Origin: Schaalia sp. 19OD2882
Lineage (GTDB): Bacteria > Actinomycetota > Actinomycetes > Actinomycetales > Actinomycetaceae
Assembly: GCF_018986735.1 (NCBI RefSeq)
Contig: NZ_CP065521.1
Location: 2,232,001-2,296,000 of the forward strand
Reading direction: 5' to 3'
Length of the DNA: 64,000 bases
Under the pieces are notes generated by a model that was not told the DNA's origin, made no database searches, and saw only the letters and a list, made by a program, of their open reading frames with translations. The translations under genes and the position numbers were made by a program. This document shows positions 9,105-42,274 of this stretch, piece by piece. The stretch's first letter is position 1. The number at the start of each line of letters is the position of its first letter.

Positions 9105-10367
9105 TCAGTGGCGCGCGCTGGAGCGCGCGTAGGGGCGCGGCAGCCCCGCAGGCTCGCCCAGCGCCGCACCCGCACGCATCCGCGAGCGCCACGCGAGCAT
9201 GAGCATCGGGTCGCTGAGCAGGGGCCGCCCGACCTCGACGATGTCCGCGCTGCCGTCAAGGATGATCTGTTCGGCCTGCTCCGGTGAGGTGATGAGTCCG
9301 GCGGCACTGACCGGCACGGGCGCCGTCCCGCCCGGCCCTGCGGCCGCCTCGTGCAGGGCGGCACGCACGGCCCGCGCGGCGAAGACCTGGTAGCCGGGCC
9401 CCGCGGGCACCTTCGCGTCGGCCACATTGCCGCCGGTGGAGACGTTCAGGACGTCCGCCCCGTCCCCCACCAGCAGCACGCCGAGGGCGCAGGTCTCCTC
9501 AAGGGTCCATCCCGGGCGGCCGTCACTCGGATACTCCTGCATCCAGTCGGTGGCGCTCAGACGCACGGCCAGCACCCCGTCGGGCACGGCGGCGCGCACT
9601 GCGCGCACGACCTCGCGCAGCAGACGCGTGCGGCCCTCGAAGTCGCCGCCCCACCGGTCCTCGCGCCGGTTGGAGGCGGGCGAGAGGAACTGGTGCATGA
9701 GGTACCCGTGGGCCCCGTGGATCTGGACGCCGTCGAATCCGGCTTCGACGGCGCGGCGCGCGGCGGCGGCGAAGGCCTGCGGGAGTGCGGCGACCTCGGC
9801 CTCGTCCAGGGCGCGCGGGACGTTCCATCCGGGTGCGAAGGGGAGGGCGGAGGGTGCCGGCACCTGCCAAGCACCCTCCTCGGGTCGTGCGGGACGCTCC
9901 CCCAGGTCGTACTCCATGACTGTGGAGCCCTTGCGTCCGGCGTGGACCAGCTGGACCAGGGCCAGGGCGCCGCCCGCGTGGATGGCGTCGGCCACGCGGG
10001 CAAAGGCGGGGATCTGCGAGTCGTCGTGCAGGCTCAGGCAATTCACCGAGATTCGTCCTTCGGGCACCACCCCGGTGGCCTCGACGACCACTGCGCCGAC
10101 GCCGCCCATGGCGTGTGAGCCGTAGTGGATGACGTGGAAGTCGGTGGGGCGGCCCAGGTGGCCCTCCCCCGAGCGGCGGGCGCCGATCCAGCTGGGGGCG
10201 GCCCCATCGGTGGACGGGGCCGCATCCGCCTCCGTGGACGAGGCAGGTGCCGCGCCCTGGTCAACGCCGGAAGATGCTTGATAGGTGCACATGGGAGGCA
10301 TCCACACGCGCGTGGGACTTGTCGAAGGGCCAACGGACACTGGGGTGAAGAGGCGACTGCGGCTCAT
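9105..10367 (-). CDS. NADH:flavin oxidoreductase, old yellow enzyme (YqjM-like)
   Basis: FMN-dependent ene-reductase of 420 residues with a TIM-barrel fold. The N terminus (SRLFTPVSVGPSTSPTRVWM, then PPMCTYQA) carries the active-site Cys of the thermophilic-like YqjM class. FHVIHYGSHAMGGVGAVVVE, LVQLVHAGRK, and GFDGVQIHGAHGYLMHQFLS with NRREDRWGG supply the substrate and FMN contacts. The C terminus (ADIVEVGRPLLSDPM) is the phosphate-binding end of the barrel. Between residues about 32 and 70 is an Ala/Ser/Asp-rich insertion that is absent from typical members, which run straight from CxYSA to the (D)xHxxHYG strand. The in vivo substrate is unknown. Confidence 0.9.
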   Translation of the reverse strand: MSRSRLFTPVSVGPSTSPTRVWMPPMCTYQASSGVDQGAAPASSTEADAAPSTDGAAPSWIGARRSGEGHLGRPTDFHVIHYGSHAMGGVGAVVVEATGVVPEGRISVNCLSLHDDSQIPAFARVADAIHAGGALALVQLVHAGRKGSTVMEYDLGERPARPEEGAWQVPAPSALPFAPGWNVPRALDEAEVAALPQAFAAAARRAVEAGFDGVQIHGAHGYLMHQFLSPASNRREDRWGGDFEGRTRLLREVVRAVRAAVPDGVLAVRLSATDWMQEYPSDGRPGWTLEETCALGVLLVGDGADVLNVSTGGNVADAKVPAGPGYQVFAARAVRAALHEAAAGPGGTAPVPVSAAGLITSPEQAEQIILDGSADIVEVGRPLLSDPMLMLAWRSRMRAGAALGEPAGLPRPYARSSARH

Positions 10368-14031: not shown

Positions 14032-15561
14032 TCAGTCGGCCTGCCCGTCAACCTGCACCGTGGAGCCCGCCCCGGCTTCCACTTGGCGCCGGTCGACCTC
14101 CTTGTAGAAGCAGCCGATCCCCGTGAGCGCCAGGACGGGCGCCACGATGAAGTTCGTGATCTGCAAGAACATGAAGGGAAGGTAGTCGGCGTAGGCGACA
14201 CCCAGTGTGGAGACCATGAAGATGCCGGTGGTCGTCCACGGAAGCATCGGCTCGATGAAGGTTCCGTAGTCCTCGATGGAACGCGACAGGACCTTGCGGG
14301 GAATGCGCGCCTCGTCGTACTTCGGGCCGAAGGCCGCGCCGACGATGAACGACGTCGCGTACTGGTTCGAGCTGAATCCGTTGACGAAGGCCGCGGAGAT
14401 CAGCGAGGCCAGGATCGTGCCGGGCCGCGAGCGGATCGCGTGGAAGGCCTTGCCCACCACGGTGCCCATGGCGTCGATGACGTCCAGCGCGCCGATGAAC
14501 ATGAAGACGCACAGGGTGATGAGCACCGCCGAGGCCATCGAGTACAACCCGCCGCGTGAGACGATCGCCGTGGCCTGCTCGTTCAGCGTCACACCTTGGC
14601 CCAGCATCTCCGGCTTGAAGCCGTTGACCAGCGTGTCCACGACGTTGGCGAAGGACTGGCCCTGCGCGAACAGGGCCACCAGGGCGGCGGTGAGGATCGA
14701 CAGGAAGAGGGTCGGCAGCGGGGGTTTGCGCCAGGCGGCACCGATGATGACCACGAGGATCGGCAGCAGCGGTCACACGCCGAAGGAGAAGGCTCCGGAC
14801 AGTGAGTCGGCCGTGGGGCGCGTCAGGGCGTCGACGTCCGCGTGCCCGGTGGCGGGGACCATGAATCCGGCGATGCCGTACAGGACGGCGGCCACGATGT
14901 ACGAGGGGCCCGTCGTGTTGACCATCGACCGGACGTGGTCGTAGACGGGCACACCGGCGCCCATTGCCGCCATGTTGGTCGTGTCGGACAGGGGCGAGAT
15001 CTTGTCGCCGAAGTAGGCGCCGCCGATGATGGCGGCCGCCAGCAGACCCAAGTGTGCGCCCGTGGCGGTGCCCACGGCGACGAGGACGACGCCGATGGTT
15101 CCTGCAGAGCCCCACGAGGTGCCTGTGGCCAGCGAGAACACCGATGTGATGAGGAAGGCGACCAGGTAGATCCATGCGGGGTTGACCACCAGCATGCCCC
15201 AGTAGACGAGCATCGGGATGGTGCCCGAGGCGGTCCAGGATCCGATGAGGATGCCGATGGCCATGAGCATCCAGATGGCGGCCAGGGCGGTGCGGGTGCG
15301 CTCTCCCATCTTGACGGTGATCTCGTCGAAGGTGTGGCCGAGGCTGAACAGCAACAGCCAGGTGCACAGGGCCGCCAGGGAGAAGGTGAATTCCAGCGGC
15401 CAGGACGGCAGTTTGAAGACCAGGGGGCCGATGACCATGCCCCACAGGATCAGGGCGACCAGCAGGAGGATCGGGGCCAGCGCGTGCCAGAAGCGCACGG
15501 GTCGTCTTTGACGCGCGGGGGCTTCCTGTTCGGATTCGATGACTGTTTCGGTGGTGCTCAT
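14032..15561 (-). pseudogene. nhaC: NhaC-type Na+/H+ antiporter gene with in-frame TGA
   Basis: The frame that starts at ATG 15561 (AAGGAA upstream) encodes an NhaC-family Na+/H+ antiporter. A cytosolic head is followed by helices around ALAPILLLVALILWGMVIGP, a conserved core GTSWGSAGTIGVVLVAVGTA and ISPLSDTTNMAAMGAGVPVY. It stops at a TGA (14773-14775), directly after FSFGV. The same frame then runs without a break for about 245 more residues (PLLPILVVIIGAAWRK, GGLYSMASAVLITLCVFMFI, SSNQYATSFIVGAAFG), giving about 509 codons, normal for NhaC. The TGA differs from TGG by one transition. Two separate proteins are possible but unlikely, because NhaC needs both halves. It lies downstream of a fucosidase gene with two similar stops. 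Confidence 0.75.
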
Positions 15562-15725
15562 GGGGATTCCTTCACTGCAGGGGTGTCGTGTGCGGATGTG
15601 GTGTCGGACAGGGGCGGTGAGGGGGTCTCTGAGGGAAGGCCGGGGTCGGGCTCCGGCGGGGTGACGAAGACGGGGTGACGAGGGCGGGGCAGGTGCGATC
15701 GCGCCCTCGTCGGGTGTTCACCTGC

Positions 15726-17162
15726 TCATGAGGTCTGGGCGCAGGTCAGGTCGACTCGCACGACGGCAGGGCAGCCGTCGGCGCGAGGGGCGGGAGTTTG
15801 GAGGAAGAGAATTGCCCCGCCCTCGTCCCCGGTGTTGGCGGCGCCGGCAGCGGCCGCGCCCCGCTCCGTCCGGATCCGCAGGGGCTCGCCCGAGGTCAGG
15901 TCGACGGCGCCGGTGACCCCCACGCCGGCGGGTGCCTGCAGACGCAGTCCGCGCTCCCCTGCCCCCGCCTGGGCTTCGACGAAGAGGTACAGGGTCGAGC
16001 CCGTCAGGCGGGAATCTGCCGGGCTCGGGCGAGTGAGGGTCGGGTGGACCCCTTCGGGCACGCTCCAGCCTGCGGCCACTGCGCTTGCGTGGATGCCGGG
16101 GCCGGCCACGTCCATCCACGCCCCGATCTGGAGCAGCCTTTCCTGCTGGATGACGGGGATGCGTCCGTCGGCGGTGGGGCCGACGTCCAGAAGGAAGTGC
16201 CCGCCTTTGGCCACGGTCTGGGCGATGAGGGCGGTCAGTTGGCCGGCGGTGGCGTAGTCCTCGATGTTCTCGGCGCGGTTGTAGCCGTATGAGCCGCCGA
16301 TGGCTCGCGACTCCTCCCACGGGTGGGCGCTGCCGAAGCCGTCGACGTCCTGGTATTCGGTGGAGTAGTAGTCGCCGTGAACTCCGGGCATGCCGACGTG
16401 GATGCGGTCGTTGACCACCACCTCGTCCCTGTTGCGGGCCTCGGTGTACAGTCATGTGAGCAATTCGCGGGTGCGCGTGTACTCCTCGCTGCAGTCCCAC
16501 TCGCCGCCGTCGGTGAAGATCAGGCTGGGCCGGTAGCGTTCGTTGAGTTCGCGCCACTGGGGGTGCAGGATCTGGTCGGGGTAGGCCTCGGGGTCGATGC
16601 CGAATCGGCGCGCGTCGGCCTCGGGGATGAAGTGTTCGCCGTTCATGCGCCGACTGGTGTGGGTCTCCCACTCGATGATCGAGTAGTACAGGCCCATGCG
16701 CATTCCGGCTGCGCGCACCGCGTCAGCCAGTTCGCCGACCAGGTCGCGGCATGGGCCCACGTCACCGGAGTTCCAGCCGACCTTGTGGGGGTTGTCGGTG
16801 GGCCACAGGCAGTAGCCGTCGTGGTGCTTGCTGGTCAGGACCACGTAGCGCGCTCCGGCTCGCGCAAAGAGGTTCGCCCATCGGGCCGGGTCGAAGAGTT
16901 CGGCGGTCAATGCGGGGGCGAAGTCCCGGTAGGTGGCGTCCCCGTAGTGGGCCCGGTGGAATTCGCCGTCCCAGTTGCGGTAGCGCCCGTAGACGGAGGC
17001 GTAGTACCACTCGGCGTAGGAGCCGAAGCGTTCGGGTGACAGGGAGCGCTAGGCGGGCACGGAGTAGACGCCCCAGTGGACGAAGATCCCGAAGCGGTCG
17101 CGCAGGAACCATTCGGGGCAGGGGCGTGCATCGAGTTGGCTCCACGATTGGGGTTCGCTCAT
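15726..17162 (-). pseudogene. GH29 alpha-L-fucosidase gene with two in-frame stops at conserved Trp codons
   Basis: The frame from ATG 17162 (AAGGAG upstream) to 15726 spans 479 codons and encodes a glycoside hydrolase family 29 alpha-L-fucosidase. It is interrupted by TAG at 17049-17051 and TGA at 16452-16454. The N terminus reads [14 protein letters not shown], then TAG, then RSLSPERFGSYAEWYYAS. The middle reads VLTSKHHDGYCLWPTDN. The nucleophile region is SLIFTDGGEWDCSEEYTR. ELLT is then followed by TGA and LYTEARNRDEVVVNDRI. GH29 members (for example human FUCA1, VPAW and LSWLYND) have Trp at both stop positions. No frameshift is present and the frame is otherwise intact. There is no signal peptide, so it would have been cytosolic. 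Decay, recoding or sequence error are all possible. Confidence 0.85.
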
Positions 17163-17508: not shown

Positions 17509-18264
17509 TCATGAGGGCCCCTCGGCTGCACGATCCCCATCTGTGGCCCGCCGGAACAGGTGAGGACTCGGGTGCAGGGCCTGCAGCCAGTAGCGGGTCG
17601 CGCGCACGTGCTCCATCGCCAGGGAACGCGCGCACGTGGGATCCCGGTCGATGACGGCCCGGGCAATGCGCAGGTGGGACTGGTCGCTGGAGGACTTGAC
17701 GCCTTCGTCCAGGCCGGCGCCATGAATGTCGAAGTCCTTGCCGCGCGAGCGGATGATCTCCGACAAGGTGGCGCTCATCGGGTCGTCGGCGCCGCCTCCG
17801 ATCGCGTCATGGAAATGCGAGTCCATGTCCTGGGCGGCCGGTGAAGGTGGTGTCCGTGAGAGTTCCTCGGCGATGTCGAGAAGTTCTCGGGCGCCGTCGG
17901 AGTCCATGCGTGCGGCGGCCAGGGCGGCCAAGTGGCCTTCGAGCAGTTCACGCAACCCCAGTAGTTCCAGGTAGGAGTCCAGGGGAAGCAGGGGGACCAC
18001 GGCGGCGAATCCGCTGAAGACGTGCGGGGCGGACAGGTCCGTCAGACGAGGGCGGCGCCCGTTGCCGGTTTCGAGTACACCCACTGTGGCCAAGGTCTGC
18101 ATGGCTTCACGTAGCGAGGGTCGTGACACCCCGAGTTGGGTGCACAGGTCGGCTTCGCTGGGCAGGACGTCGCCCGCATGCAGGTCTCCCTCGGCGATCA
18201 TCCGGCACAGGCCTTCTCTGGCGACGTCCACGGCTCCCATGCGAGTGAGATTACTCACTCGCAT
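17509..18264 (-). CDS. GntR family regulator, FadR subfamily
   Basis: DNA-binding regulator of 251 residues. The N-terminal winged helix ([40 protein letters not shown]) is the GntR signature. The C-terminal all-helical FCD domain (about residues 90-235) contains HFHDAIGG and [16 protein letters not shown], which supply Asp/His ligand residues for a metal or organic acid effector. Two starts are possible, ATG 18264 and ATG 18240; neither has a clear ribosome site. A GACAAT hexamer ends about 5 nt before the 18264 ATG on the coding strand, so a leaderless mRNA is possible. Target genes may be the broken fucosidase/NhaC pair downstream or the gene itself; this is inference from position. Confidence 0.85.
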
Positions 18265-40333: not shown

Positions 40334-42274
40334 TCACTTCTTCCTTCGCCTGCCCAAGGGGGAGGACGGGCCCTTCGGCAGGCGCGGGATCCACGAGCTG
40401 CGCGGCGAGGTGAACATCGGGATGTCCGGCGCCTTCGCGCGACGCCGGTGGCTGCGATCCACGGTGTGTTCGACCAGCGAGGTGATGCGTTCGCGCAGCA
40501 GCGCCCTCTCGGCGCGCATCGTCAGCTGGTGCTCGTGGTCGAAGGCTTTCGTCATGGACACACAGGTGGACACCATGACCACCGAGAATGGCAACGCCGT
40601 GAGGATCGACAGCACCTGCAGGGCGCTCAGGCCGTCGGTGACAGCCCCTTGGGAGGCGCCGACCCACAGCAGCAGAGCCGCGATCCCTCCCTGCAGTCCG
40701 GCCCACAGCAGGCGCAGCGCCAGAGGCGGGTTGTGGGAGCCGTTGGCGGAGAGCATCCCCAGGACGAAGGACGCCGAATCGGAGCTGGTGACGAAGAAGA
40801 CGACCAGCAGCACCATGAACAGGCCGGTGAGCACTGGGCCACCCGGCAGCAGGTCCGCGACCTTGAACAGGGCCGTCGTCGTCCAGCCCGGGGTGGCGGT
40901 CAGGCCGGCGCCGTGCATTTCGTGCCACAGGGCCGTGCCTCCCAGGATGGAGAACCACAGGAAGGTGAGCAGGGTGGGCACCAGCAGCACGCCGGTGACG
41001 AACTCGCGCACGGAACGTCCGCGGGAAATGCGGGCGATGAACACGCCGACGAAGGGCGACCAGCTCATCCACCATCCCCAGTAGTAGGTGGTCCAGCTGC
41101 CCAACCAGGCCTCACCGTCCCCGCCTTGGTAGGGCAGGGTGCGGAAGGACATCTGGATGAAGTATTCGACGTACTGTCCGATGGTCTGGACCAGTTCACG
41201 CAGGATGAACAGGGTGGGTCCCAGCACCAGCATGGCGACCATGAGCAGCCCGGCCAGGACCAAGTTGGCGTTGGAGAGGAACTTGATGCCCGCGTCCAGG
41301 CCCGAAGCCACCGACAGGGCCGCAAGCGCAGAGATGACGATCACGACGATGACGAAGACGATGGGCGAGGATGTCACCAGACCCAGGAATTCCATGCCCG
41401 AGGTGAATTGGGTGGCCCCGAACCCCAGCGAGGTGGCCACTCCGAAAAGGGTTCCGACCAGCGCCGTCACGTCGATGAGGTCACCCAGCCAGCCGCGTAC
41501 GCGCTCTCCCAGCAGAGGTTCCAGGACCCACCGGAGGGAAACCGGCCGACCGCGGCGGTGGCTCATGTAGGCCACTGCCACACCGACGACCACGTAGATG
41601 GCCCAAGCCGACAGGCCCCAGTGCAAGAAGGTGGTGGTCATTGCGGTTTGGGCGACATCGGCGGGCGAGGACGCGTCGGTGCCGGGCGGGGGCACCGTGT
41701 AGTGGCTCAGTGGTTCGGCCACTCCCCAAAAGACCAGGCCGATGCCCATACCTGCGGCGAAGAGCATGGCGAACCAGCTGGTCCGGGAGTAGGTCGGCTC
41801 TTCGTCATCGGGCCCCAGCGTGATGTCGCCGAATCGGGAAACGGCCAGGAACAGGGCGAATGCGACGAAGCCGACGACGATCAGTGTGTAGTACCACCCG
41901 AGTGAGTTGATGACGGTGGCGGAGGTCGCCTGGAGCAGGTCCTTCATCCGGTGGGGCACCAGCAGGGCAGGCGCCAGGAAGAGGAGGACCACGACGGTCG
42001 CCGCGATGGCGACCCTCCAGTTGACGGGCGCTTCCGCAGCCGCGTCGACGGACTCGGGTTGGTCGGGGTTCACTGACGGGGCCGGGGCCTGGTCGTCGCC
42101 TTGATTCGGGGACGAGGCCGGGGCCGTCACCGGATCGGGGGTGTTGCCATTCGGCGGCGCGGGAAGGTCGGGGTGTGTGCGCGGGTCGGGGCGCTCTGCT
42201 GCTGGAACCGGGGTTTCCTCTTCAGGTGCCAGAGCGGCAAGGAGGGGGTTCACGACACGGTCGGGCGAGCTCAT
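40334..42274 (-). CDS. BCCT transporter, Na+-coupled betaine type
   Basis: Twelve-helix carrier of 646 residues for glycine betaine or related osmolytes. The sodium- and substrate-site helix reads MLFAAGMGIGLVFWGVAEPL, the GMGIG form of BetP/OpuD. The Trp-rich helix 8 reads WTTYYWGWWMSWSPFVGVFI, including the WWxSWSPF aromatic box. An N-terminal cytosolic extension of about 85 residues is rich in Pro, Asp and Ala, and the C-terminal tail is basic (SLVEHTVDRSHRRRAK); such tails act as osmosensors in BetP. It contrasts with the choline-type carrier at 19278. It is an apparent single-gene unit. Confidence 0.92.
   Translation of the reverse strand: MSSPDRVVNPLLAALAPEEETPVPAAERPDPRTHPDLPAPPNGNTPDPVTAPASSPNQGDDQAPAPSVNPDQPESVDAAAEAPVNWRVAIAATVVVLLFLAPALLVPHRMKDLLQATSATVINSLGWYYTLIVVGFVAFALFLAVSRFGDITLGPDDEEPTYSRTSWFAMLFAAGMGIGLVFWGVAEPLSHYTVPPPGTDASSPADVAQTAMTTTFLHWGLSAWAIYVVVGVAVAYMSHRRGRPVSLRWVLEPLLGERVRGWLGDLIDVTALVGTLFGVATSLGFGATQFTSGMEFLGLVTSSPIVFVIVVIVISALAALSVASGLDAGIKFLSNANLVLAGLLMVAMLVLGPTLFILRELVQTIGQYVEYFIQMSFRTLPYQGGDGEAWLGSWTTYYWGWWMSWSPFVGVFIARISRGRSVREFVTGVLLVPTLLTFLWFSILGGTALWHEMHGAGLTATPGWTTTALFKVADLLPGGPVLTGLFMVLLVVFFVTSSDSASFVLGMLSANGSHNPPLALRLLWAGLQGGIAALLLWVGASQGAVTDGLSALQVLSILTALPFSVVMVSTCVSMTKAFDHEHQLTMRAERALLRERITSLVEHTVDRSHRRRAKAPDIPMFTSPRSSWIPRLPKGPSSPLGRRRKK

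What the first reader, a model, noticed from the sequence alone, without database searches (positions are those of the whole stretch)
14773..17051. Three in-frame stops at Trp codons in two neighbouring genes
TGA at 14773-14775 splits an NhaC gene; TGA at 16452-16454 and TAG at 17049-17051 split a GH29 fucosidase gene. Both GH29 stops fall where the family has a conserved Trp (VPA-W and LT-W-LY), and each stop differs from TGG by one G-to-A transition on the coding strand. There are no frameshifts and both frames are otherwise intact over about 480-510 codons. All other genes in the window are free of stops. The cluster fits very recent decay of a fucose/Na+ locus, directed or strand-biased C-to-T change on the plus strand, stop-codon recoding as Trp, or error.
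Basis: partly seen in the sequence, partly recalled or inferred. Interest (0 to 1): 0.7.

Follow-up and report, generated by a model that had tools for sequence, protein, structure and literature searches.

The report
Ordinary decaying sugar-use gene pair
Two neighbouring bacterial genes, one for releasing the sugar fucose and one for a transporter, carry three premature stop codons that look like normal recent gene decay and not like a change of the genetic code.

Summary
The three in-frame stops are real and correctly placed: TGA at codon 263 of an NhaC-type transporter gene; TAG at codon 38 and TGA at codon 237 of a GH29 alpha-L-fucosidase gene. The title is wrong for one: both GH29 positions are Trp in 8 of 8 same-genus orthologues, but the NhaC position is Trp in 0 of 20 same-genus homologues (17 Leu, 1 each Met, Phe, Thr). 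The genes form a module, intact in 8 of 34 other genomes of the genus, with an FCD-GntR regulator beside it in some other genera. Recoding is contradicted: TGA ends 774 of 814 sampled ORFs, none of 49 tRNAs reads a stop, and the one tRNA-Trp is genus-typical with a five-pair anticodon stem. No regional C-to-T burst is visible. Similar in-frame stops occur elsewhere in the half of the genome examined, one of them at a conserved Trp of an ABC permease beside another GH29 gene, and in the sister species. Trp codons supply 70 of 115 transition routes to a stop in three genes examined. Best reading: ordinary recent pseudogenisation of one operon. Assembly error cannot be excluded without reads.

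The parts
15726..17162 (-). GH29 alpha-L-fucosidase pseudogene (478 codons plus stop if read through)
   Evidence: PF01120 E=6.4e-98, residues 5-354; nearest solved sequences are alpha-L-fucosidases; 8 same-genus orthologues without internal stops in the tblastn alignments
17049..17051 (-). in-frame TAG, GH29 codon 38
   Evidence: Trp in 8 of 8 same-genus orthologues
16452..16454 (-). in-frame TGA, GH29 codon 237
   Evidence: Trp in 8 of 8 same-genus orthologues and 34 of 34 distant homologues
14032..15561 (-). NhaC-type Na+/H+ antiporter family transporter pseudogene (509 codons plus stop)
   Evidence: PF03553 E=1.1e-43; TIGR00931 366.4 bits, just under its cut-off of 370; 8 same-genus orthologues at 67-78% identity
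14773..14775 (-). in-frame TGA, NhaC codon 263
   Evidence: Leu 17, Met 1, Phe 1, Thr 1, never Trp, in 20 same-genus homologues
17509..18264 (-). open FCD-type GntR regulator, possible regulator of the module
   Evidence: PF00392 and PF07729; FCD-GntR genes stand next to GH29 and the NhaC-type gene in L068 and L066
17323..17412 (+). tRNA-Ser(CGA) between regulator and GH29; a neighbour, not a suppressor

Best explanation
The GH29-NhaC module is an ordinary recent pseudo-operon. The lineage lost selection for this alpha-fucoside cassette and point changes put premature stops into both genes. Ribosomes should stop at codon 38 in the fucosidase and at codon 263 in the transporter, so neither full protein is expected. 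Trp codons are frequent victims because each has two transition routes to a stop and these genes are rich in Trp. Shown: the stops, the uninterrupted orthologues, the normal decoding machinery, similar stops elsewhere. Inferred: loss of function, loss of selection, that the two genes form one operon, and the order of events (the fucosidase may have decayed first).
For: Module without stops in 8 of 34 other genomes of the genus, the same 8 for both genes. GH29 departs at 16 of 191 columns invariant in the other eight, relatives at 1-5 of 178-182; some departures hit residues invariant in 34 of 34 distant homologues, positions 287 and 322. Standard decoding: 49 tRNAs typed, no UCA, CUA or UUA anticodon; no tRNA-Sec over cut-off; three RF-1-domain genes; TGA ends 774 of 814 ORFs; tRNA-Trp matched at 100% in 29 of 35 genomes, 16 of them over the full length, with a 5-bp anticodon stem. 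Other nonsense-interrupted genes in the own genome: ABC permease in L189, rearranged GDPD in L214, and a probable frameshift in L238. The sister species has an interrupted MFS-like gene (the MFS score is just under its cut-off) and a probable frameshift in L259. Of 115 transition nonsense routes in GH29, NhaC and the permease, 70 are at Trp. Shulgina and Eddy 2021 (PMC8629427, passages seen) say, of yeast genomes, that in-frame stops in pseudogenes arise mostly by transitions from codons such as UGG.
Against: No frameshift or deletion is in either gene. NhaC shows no relaxed constraint (4 of 246; relatives 0-10 of 242-252). At positions conserved in distant homologues the own GH29 departs at 8 of 109, within the relatives' 5-11 of 110, and its terminal branch is the longest of the nine, so part of its excess is plain divergence. 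The codon branch model gives no raised omega on the own branch, but the fitted branch length sits at its bound, so the test cannot date the stops. Three of three informative stops at Trp is not very likely if transversions count as much as transitions (0.008). No conspecific strain and no reads were available.
Confidence: 0.87

Rival explanations
1. Sequencing or consensus error at the three positions of a single-contig assembly.
For: No reads or conspecific genome could be inspected. The NhaC gene shows no relaxation.
Against: Errors confined to two adjacent co-oriented genes are unlikely. Of 86 sister-to-own protein pairs 9 were flagged; after setting aside 6 by eye as end effects or other-frame matches, only these two genes have internal stops, plus one probable frameshift elsewhere. 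GH29 carries further unusual replacements.
Confidence: 0.08
2. Stop-to-Trp recoding or efficient suppression, by a suppressor tRNA or a UGA-reading tRNA-Trp.
For: Two GH29 stops and one ABC permease stop sit at Trp positions.
Against: TGA ends 774 of 814 ORFs. No suppressor anticodon among 49 tRNAs. One tRNA-Trp(CCA) of genus-typical sequence with a 5-bp anticodon stem and, by my own position count, no G24A; a 4-bp stem and G24A are the features that PMC13092985 ties to UGA reading (passages). The NhaC stop is not at a Trp position, and one stop is TAG. RF-1-domain genes present.
Confidence: 0.02
3. Local or strand-biased C-to-T hypermutation hit this stretch.
For: Both GH29 stops fit G-to-A on the coding strand, and all five in-frame stops recognised in the own sample lie in minus-strand genes. 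Three of three stops at Trp has probability 0.008-0.067 over transition weights 1-4.
Against: Third-position A is not raised (77th, 30th, 9th percentile). A uracil-DNA-glycosylase-family gene and a NucS gene are present in open frames. The NhaC change is not a simple G-to-A from the relatives' state. If only transitions count, three of three at Trp has probability 0.23 (70 of 115 cubed).
Confidence: 0.03

Closest known systems
Nonsense pseudogenes of bacteria, recent operon decay
   Same: Premature stops in otherwise intact frames, two genes of one module hit, uninterrupted orthologues in related species
   Different: No indel in either gene; one gene shows little other relaxation; otherwise no difference seen
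UGA-to-Trp reassigned bacteria (Mycoplasma, Zinderia, seen in passages; Hodgkinia recalled)
   Same: In-frame TGA at some conserved Trp positions
   Different: TGA is the main stop here, tRNA-Trp is standard, no UCA anticodon, one stop is TAG and one is not at a Trp position
GH29 / NhaC-type / FCD-GntR cassettes of Tessaracoccus massiliensis (L068) and a Brevibacterium MAG (L066)
   Same: Same order of GH29 and NhaC-type transporter, FCD-GntR gene next to them
   Different: Those frames are open; the regulator there is divergent from GH29, here it is co-oriented with a tRNA-Ser between

Membership tests
nonsense pseudogene | premature in-frame stop relative to uninterrupted orthologues | tested here: met
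nonsense pseudogene | relaxed constraint elsewhere in the gene | tested here: inconclusive
   GH29 16 of 191 private departures (relatives 1-5 of 178-182) but NhaC 4 of 246; branch omega saturated
nonsense pseudogene | no functional protein product | not testable with these tools
   needs proteomics or an enzyme assay
UGA/UAG-to-Trp recoding | tRNA able to read the stop as Trp | tested here: not met
   49 tRNAs, none with UCA, CUA or UUA; tRNA-Trp(CCA) genus-typical, 5-bp stem
UGA/UAG-to-Trp recoding | codon rare or absent as terminator | tested here: not met
   TGA 774 and TAG 34 of 814 ORF ends
UGA/UAG-to-Trp recoding | in-frame stops line up with Trp | tested here: not met
   true for GH29 and the ABC permease, false for NhaC; GDPD unclear
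selenocysteine recoding | tRNA-Sec gene | tested here: not met
   RF01852: 9 weak matches, none over cut-off
GH29 alpha-L-fucosidase (sequence family) | PF01120 domain | tested here: met
   E=6.4e-98 with stops read through

The most novel reading that the evidence does not exclude
Low-level, context-dependent read-through of these stops still makes a little full-length fucosidase and transporter, so the module is throttled and not lost. The stop in a second GH29 locus (the ABC permease) would then point to one shared down-regulation of fucoside use.
Probability: 0.02. Interest if true: 0.6.

Novelty: new member of a known kind. Interest (0 to 1): 0.12.

Why it matters
It matters little beyond annotation: the two genes should be marked as pseudogenes and not as recoded genes. 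The finding shows why stops at conserved Trp codons are a weak sign of recoding in Trp-rich genes of GC-rich genomes. With the interrupted ABC permease beside a second GH29 gene it hints that this lineage is losing some alpha-fucoside use.

Tried and rejected
Suppressor tRNA and tRNA-Sec: none. UGA-reading tRNA-Trp variants: features absent. Branch-specific omega: the own branch hits its bound, uninformative; the same model gives a transition/transversion ratio of only 1.25-1.32, which taken at face value would put three of three stops at Trp near 0.01. Relaxation test on the ABC permease: uninformative, because own and G017 are both long branches (12 of 197 and 13 of 199) and the other 15 show 0 of 186. 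In that test the comparison set for each relative includes the own sequence with its stops left out. Regional C-to-T burst: no sign.

Stop scan: 44 own and 8 sister hits scored 5 or more. The frames around 24 own and 4 sister hits were printed; the rest were judged from the 25 residues on either side. Most were set aside by eye as in-frame neighbouring genes or antisense frames, with no formal rule; hits scoring 4 to 5 (63 own and 14 sister hits at 4 or more) were not gone through outside the window. Sister-to-own pairs: 9 of 86 flagged, 6 set aside by eye. Own-to-sister: 6 of 98 flagged, 3 were stops at alignment ends or in poor extensions, of the 3 split alignments one looks like a frameshift in the sister (L259, about 9646-9649), the other two look like flanking-frame matches. 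The GDPD stop could not be assigned: of 7 distant homologues covering it 4 have Arg and 3 a gap. The table flags one TGA in the sister's GH29 hit and that one in a distant NhaC homologue of G013; the tblastn alignments show none. Literature: four searches (listings and abstract starts) showed no report of these genes; PMC7872956 mentions only the NHAc group, not NhaC (passages).

Full report
What is there. Translation of the minus strand confirms TAG at 17049-17051 and TGA at 16452-16454 inside a GH29 frame (15726-17162) and TGA at 14773-14775 inside an NhaC-type frame (14032-15561), with both frames otherwise open. Pfam assigns Alpha_L_fucos (6.4e-98) and Na_H_antiporter (1.1e-43) across the stops. 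NCBIfam's NhaC model scores 366.4 bits against a cut-off of 370, so the transporter's substrate is open.

Where it lies. 

Relatives. Of 35 genomes searched (own included), 9 hold the GH29 orthologue (63% identity or more) and the same 9 hold the NhaC orthologue (67% or more). The tblastn alignments show stops only in the own copies; some GH29 alignments cover only residues 3-351 to 5-399. The '1 TGA' that one search prints for G004's GH29 hit was not found in the tblastn alignment. At the two GH29 positions all 8 other orthologues have Trp. Among 34 more distant homologues Trp stands in 26 of the 33 that cover codon 38 and in 34 of 34 at codon 237. Eleven less related GH29 genes of the same genus keep Trp at 38 but have Leu (8), His (2) or Tyr (1) at 237. 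At the NhaC position none of 20 same-genus homologues has Trp: Leu 17, Phe, Thr and Met once each; the 8 orthologues have Leu in 6, Phe in 1 and Thr in 1, with a Trp two codons further on in 4 of them. So the claim of three Trp-to-stop transitions holds for two of the three stops.

Module. In Tessaracoccus massiliensis (L068) and a Brevibacterium MAG (L066) GH29 and a Na_H_antiporter-family gene are adjacent and an FCD-GntR gene lies beside them. In A. culturomici (L064) the pair is adjacent too, but no such regulator was seen in its 4 kb upstream (a crude ORF pick). In the window the FCD-GntR regulator at 17509-18264 is open, with a tRNA-Ser(CGA) between. Two stops in one gene and one in the other are what decay of one functional unit would give.

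Recoding test. All 49 tRNA matches in the genome were typed by ARAGORN: none has a stop-reading anticodon, and there is one tRNA-Trp(CCA). No tRNA-Sec match passes its cut-off. Three RF-1-domain proteins are encoded; naming them RF1, RF2 and an ArfB-like protein is my inference. TGA ends 774, TAG 34 and TAA 6 of 814 mechanically picked ORFs. The tRNA-Trp gene is matched at 100% identity over 66-76 of 76 bases in 29 of 35 genomes (16 over the full length) and at 96-99% in the other 6. It folds with five pairs in the anticodon stem, and position 24 is G by my count, so it lacks the 4-bp stem and G24A that PMC13092985 (passages seen) links to UGA reading. Recoding is contradicted.

Is it unusual in this genome? 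I examined 1.264 Mb of 2.564 Mb (49%). The stretches were picked partly around tRNAs and GH29 loci and partly at even steps. Besides the three, the scan found in-frame TGA in a carbohydrate ABC permease (L189:10674-11618, beside another GH29 gene) and in a GDPD gene fused to a truncated amino-acid permease start (L214). The permease stop is at a position that is Trp in 16 of 16 close orthologues. Of 86 sister-to-own protein pairs, only NhaC and GH29 had internal stops after 6 flagged pairs were set aside by eye, and L238 had a probable frameshift. In the sister's 400 kb an MFS match (32.5 bits, cut-off 33.4) spans an in-frame TGA in L253, a frame with a DUF1801 domain in L250 has a TAG outside the matched domain, and L259 looks frameshifted. 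Such events look ordinary in this group.

Why Trp? In GH29, NhaC and the ABC permease 70 of 115 one-step transition routes to a stop are at Trp codons; none of 228 transversion routes is. Three of three informative stops at Trp has probability 0.23 if only transitions count (my arithmetic), 0.067 at transition weight 4, 0.029 at weight 2 and 0.008 at weight 1. This leans at most towards a transition-rich mutation spectrum; the permease was found in a stretch fetched for its GH29 gene, and the pattern was noticed before it was tested. Shulgina and Eddy (PMC8629427, passages) state the same effect for pseudogenes in yeast. Third-position A is not raised, so no local C-to-T burst is visible. A uracil-DNA-glycosylase-family match (partial, positions 7-75 of 141) and a NucS match are present in open frames.

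Constraint. GH29 has 16 private replacements at 191 columns invariant in the other eight; each relative has 1-5 at 178-182. NhaC has 4 of 246, within the relatives' 0-10 of 242-252. The own GH29 branch is the longest terminal branch (0.39 on the joint topology, next 0.37), so part of the excess is plain divergence. At positions conserved in distant homologues the own count is 8 of 109, relatives 5-11 of 110, though the own changes include two residues invariant in 34 of 34 homologues. The codon model with the own branch fixed at omega 1 fits worse than one omega (-9135.54 against -9108.13 for GH29, -9599.11 against -9577.48 for NhaC), but the own branch runs to its bound when omega is free, so synonymous change is saturated. 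Together this fits a long functional past and a recent loss, the fucosidase perhaps first; it does not date the stops.

Verdict. An ordinary, probably recent pseudo-operon of alpha-fucoside use. Error in the assembly remains possible and needs reads.

Noticed in passing
L189:10674-11618 (G000:C1:2071673-2072617, minus): Carbohydrate ABC transporter permease with an in-frame TGA at a position that is Trp in 16 of 16 close orthologues, beside a second GH29 gene.
   Followed up: yes
L214:12543-13472 (minus): GDPD-family gene fused in frame to a truncated amino-acid permease start and interrupted by a TGA; A. culturomici matches only its C-terminal 57 residues.
   Followed up: partly
L238:10647-11977 (minus): Probable frameshift in a gene matching a sister ORF in two frames.
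   Followed up: no
41021-41115 (minus): ARAGORN calls a 95-base tRNA-Pro(GGG) that is absent from the Rfam tRNA matches of the genome, which has a tRNA-Pro(GGG) at 1291420; probably a false call.
   Followed up: partly
L253:12281-12925, L250:1611-2579 and L259 about 9646-9649 (A. culturomici): Sister-species frames with an in-frame stop, an MFS-like transporter (match spans the stop) and a protein with a DUF1801 domain, and a probable frameshift in L259.
   Followed up: partly
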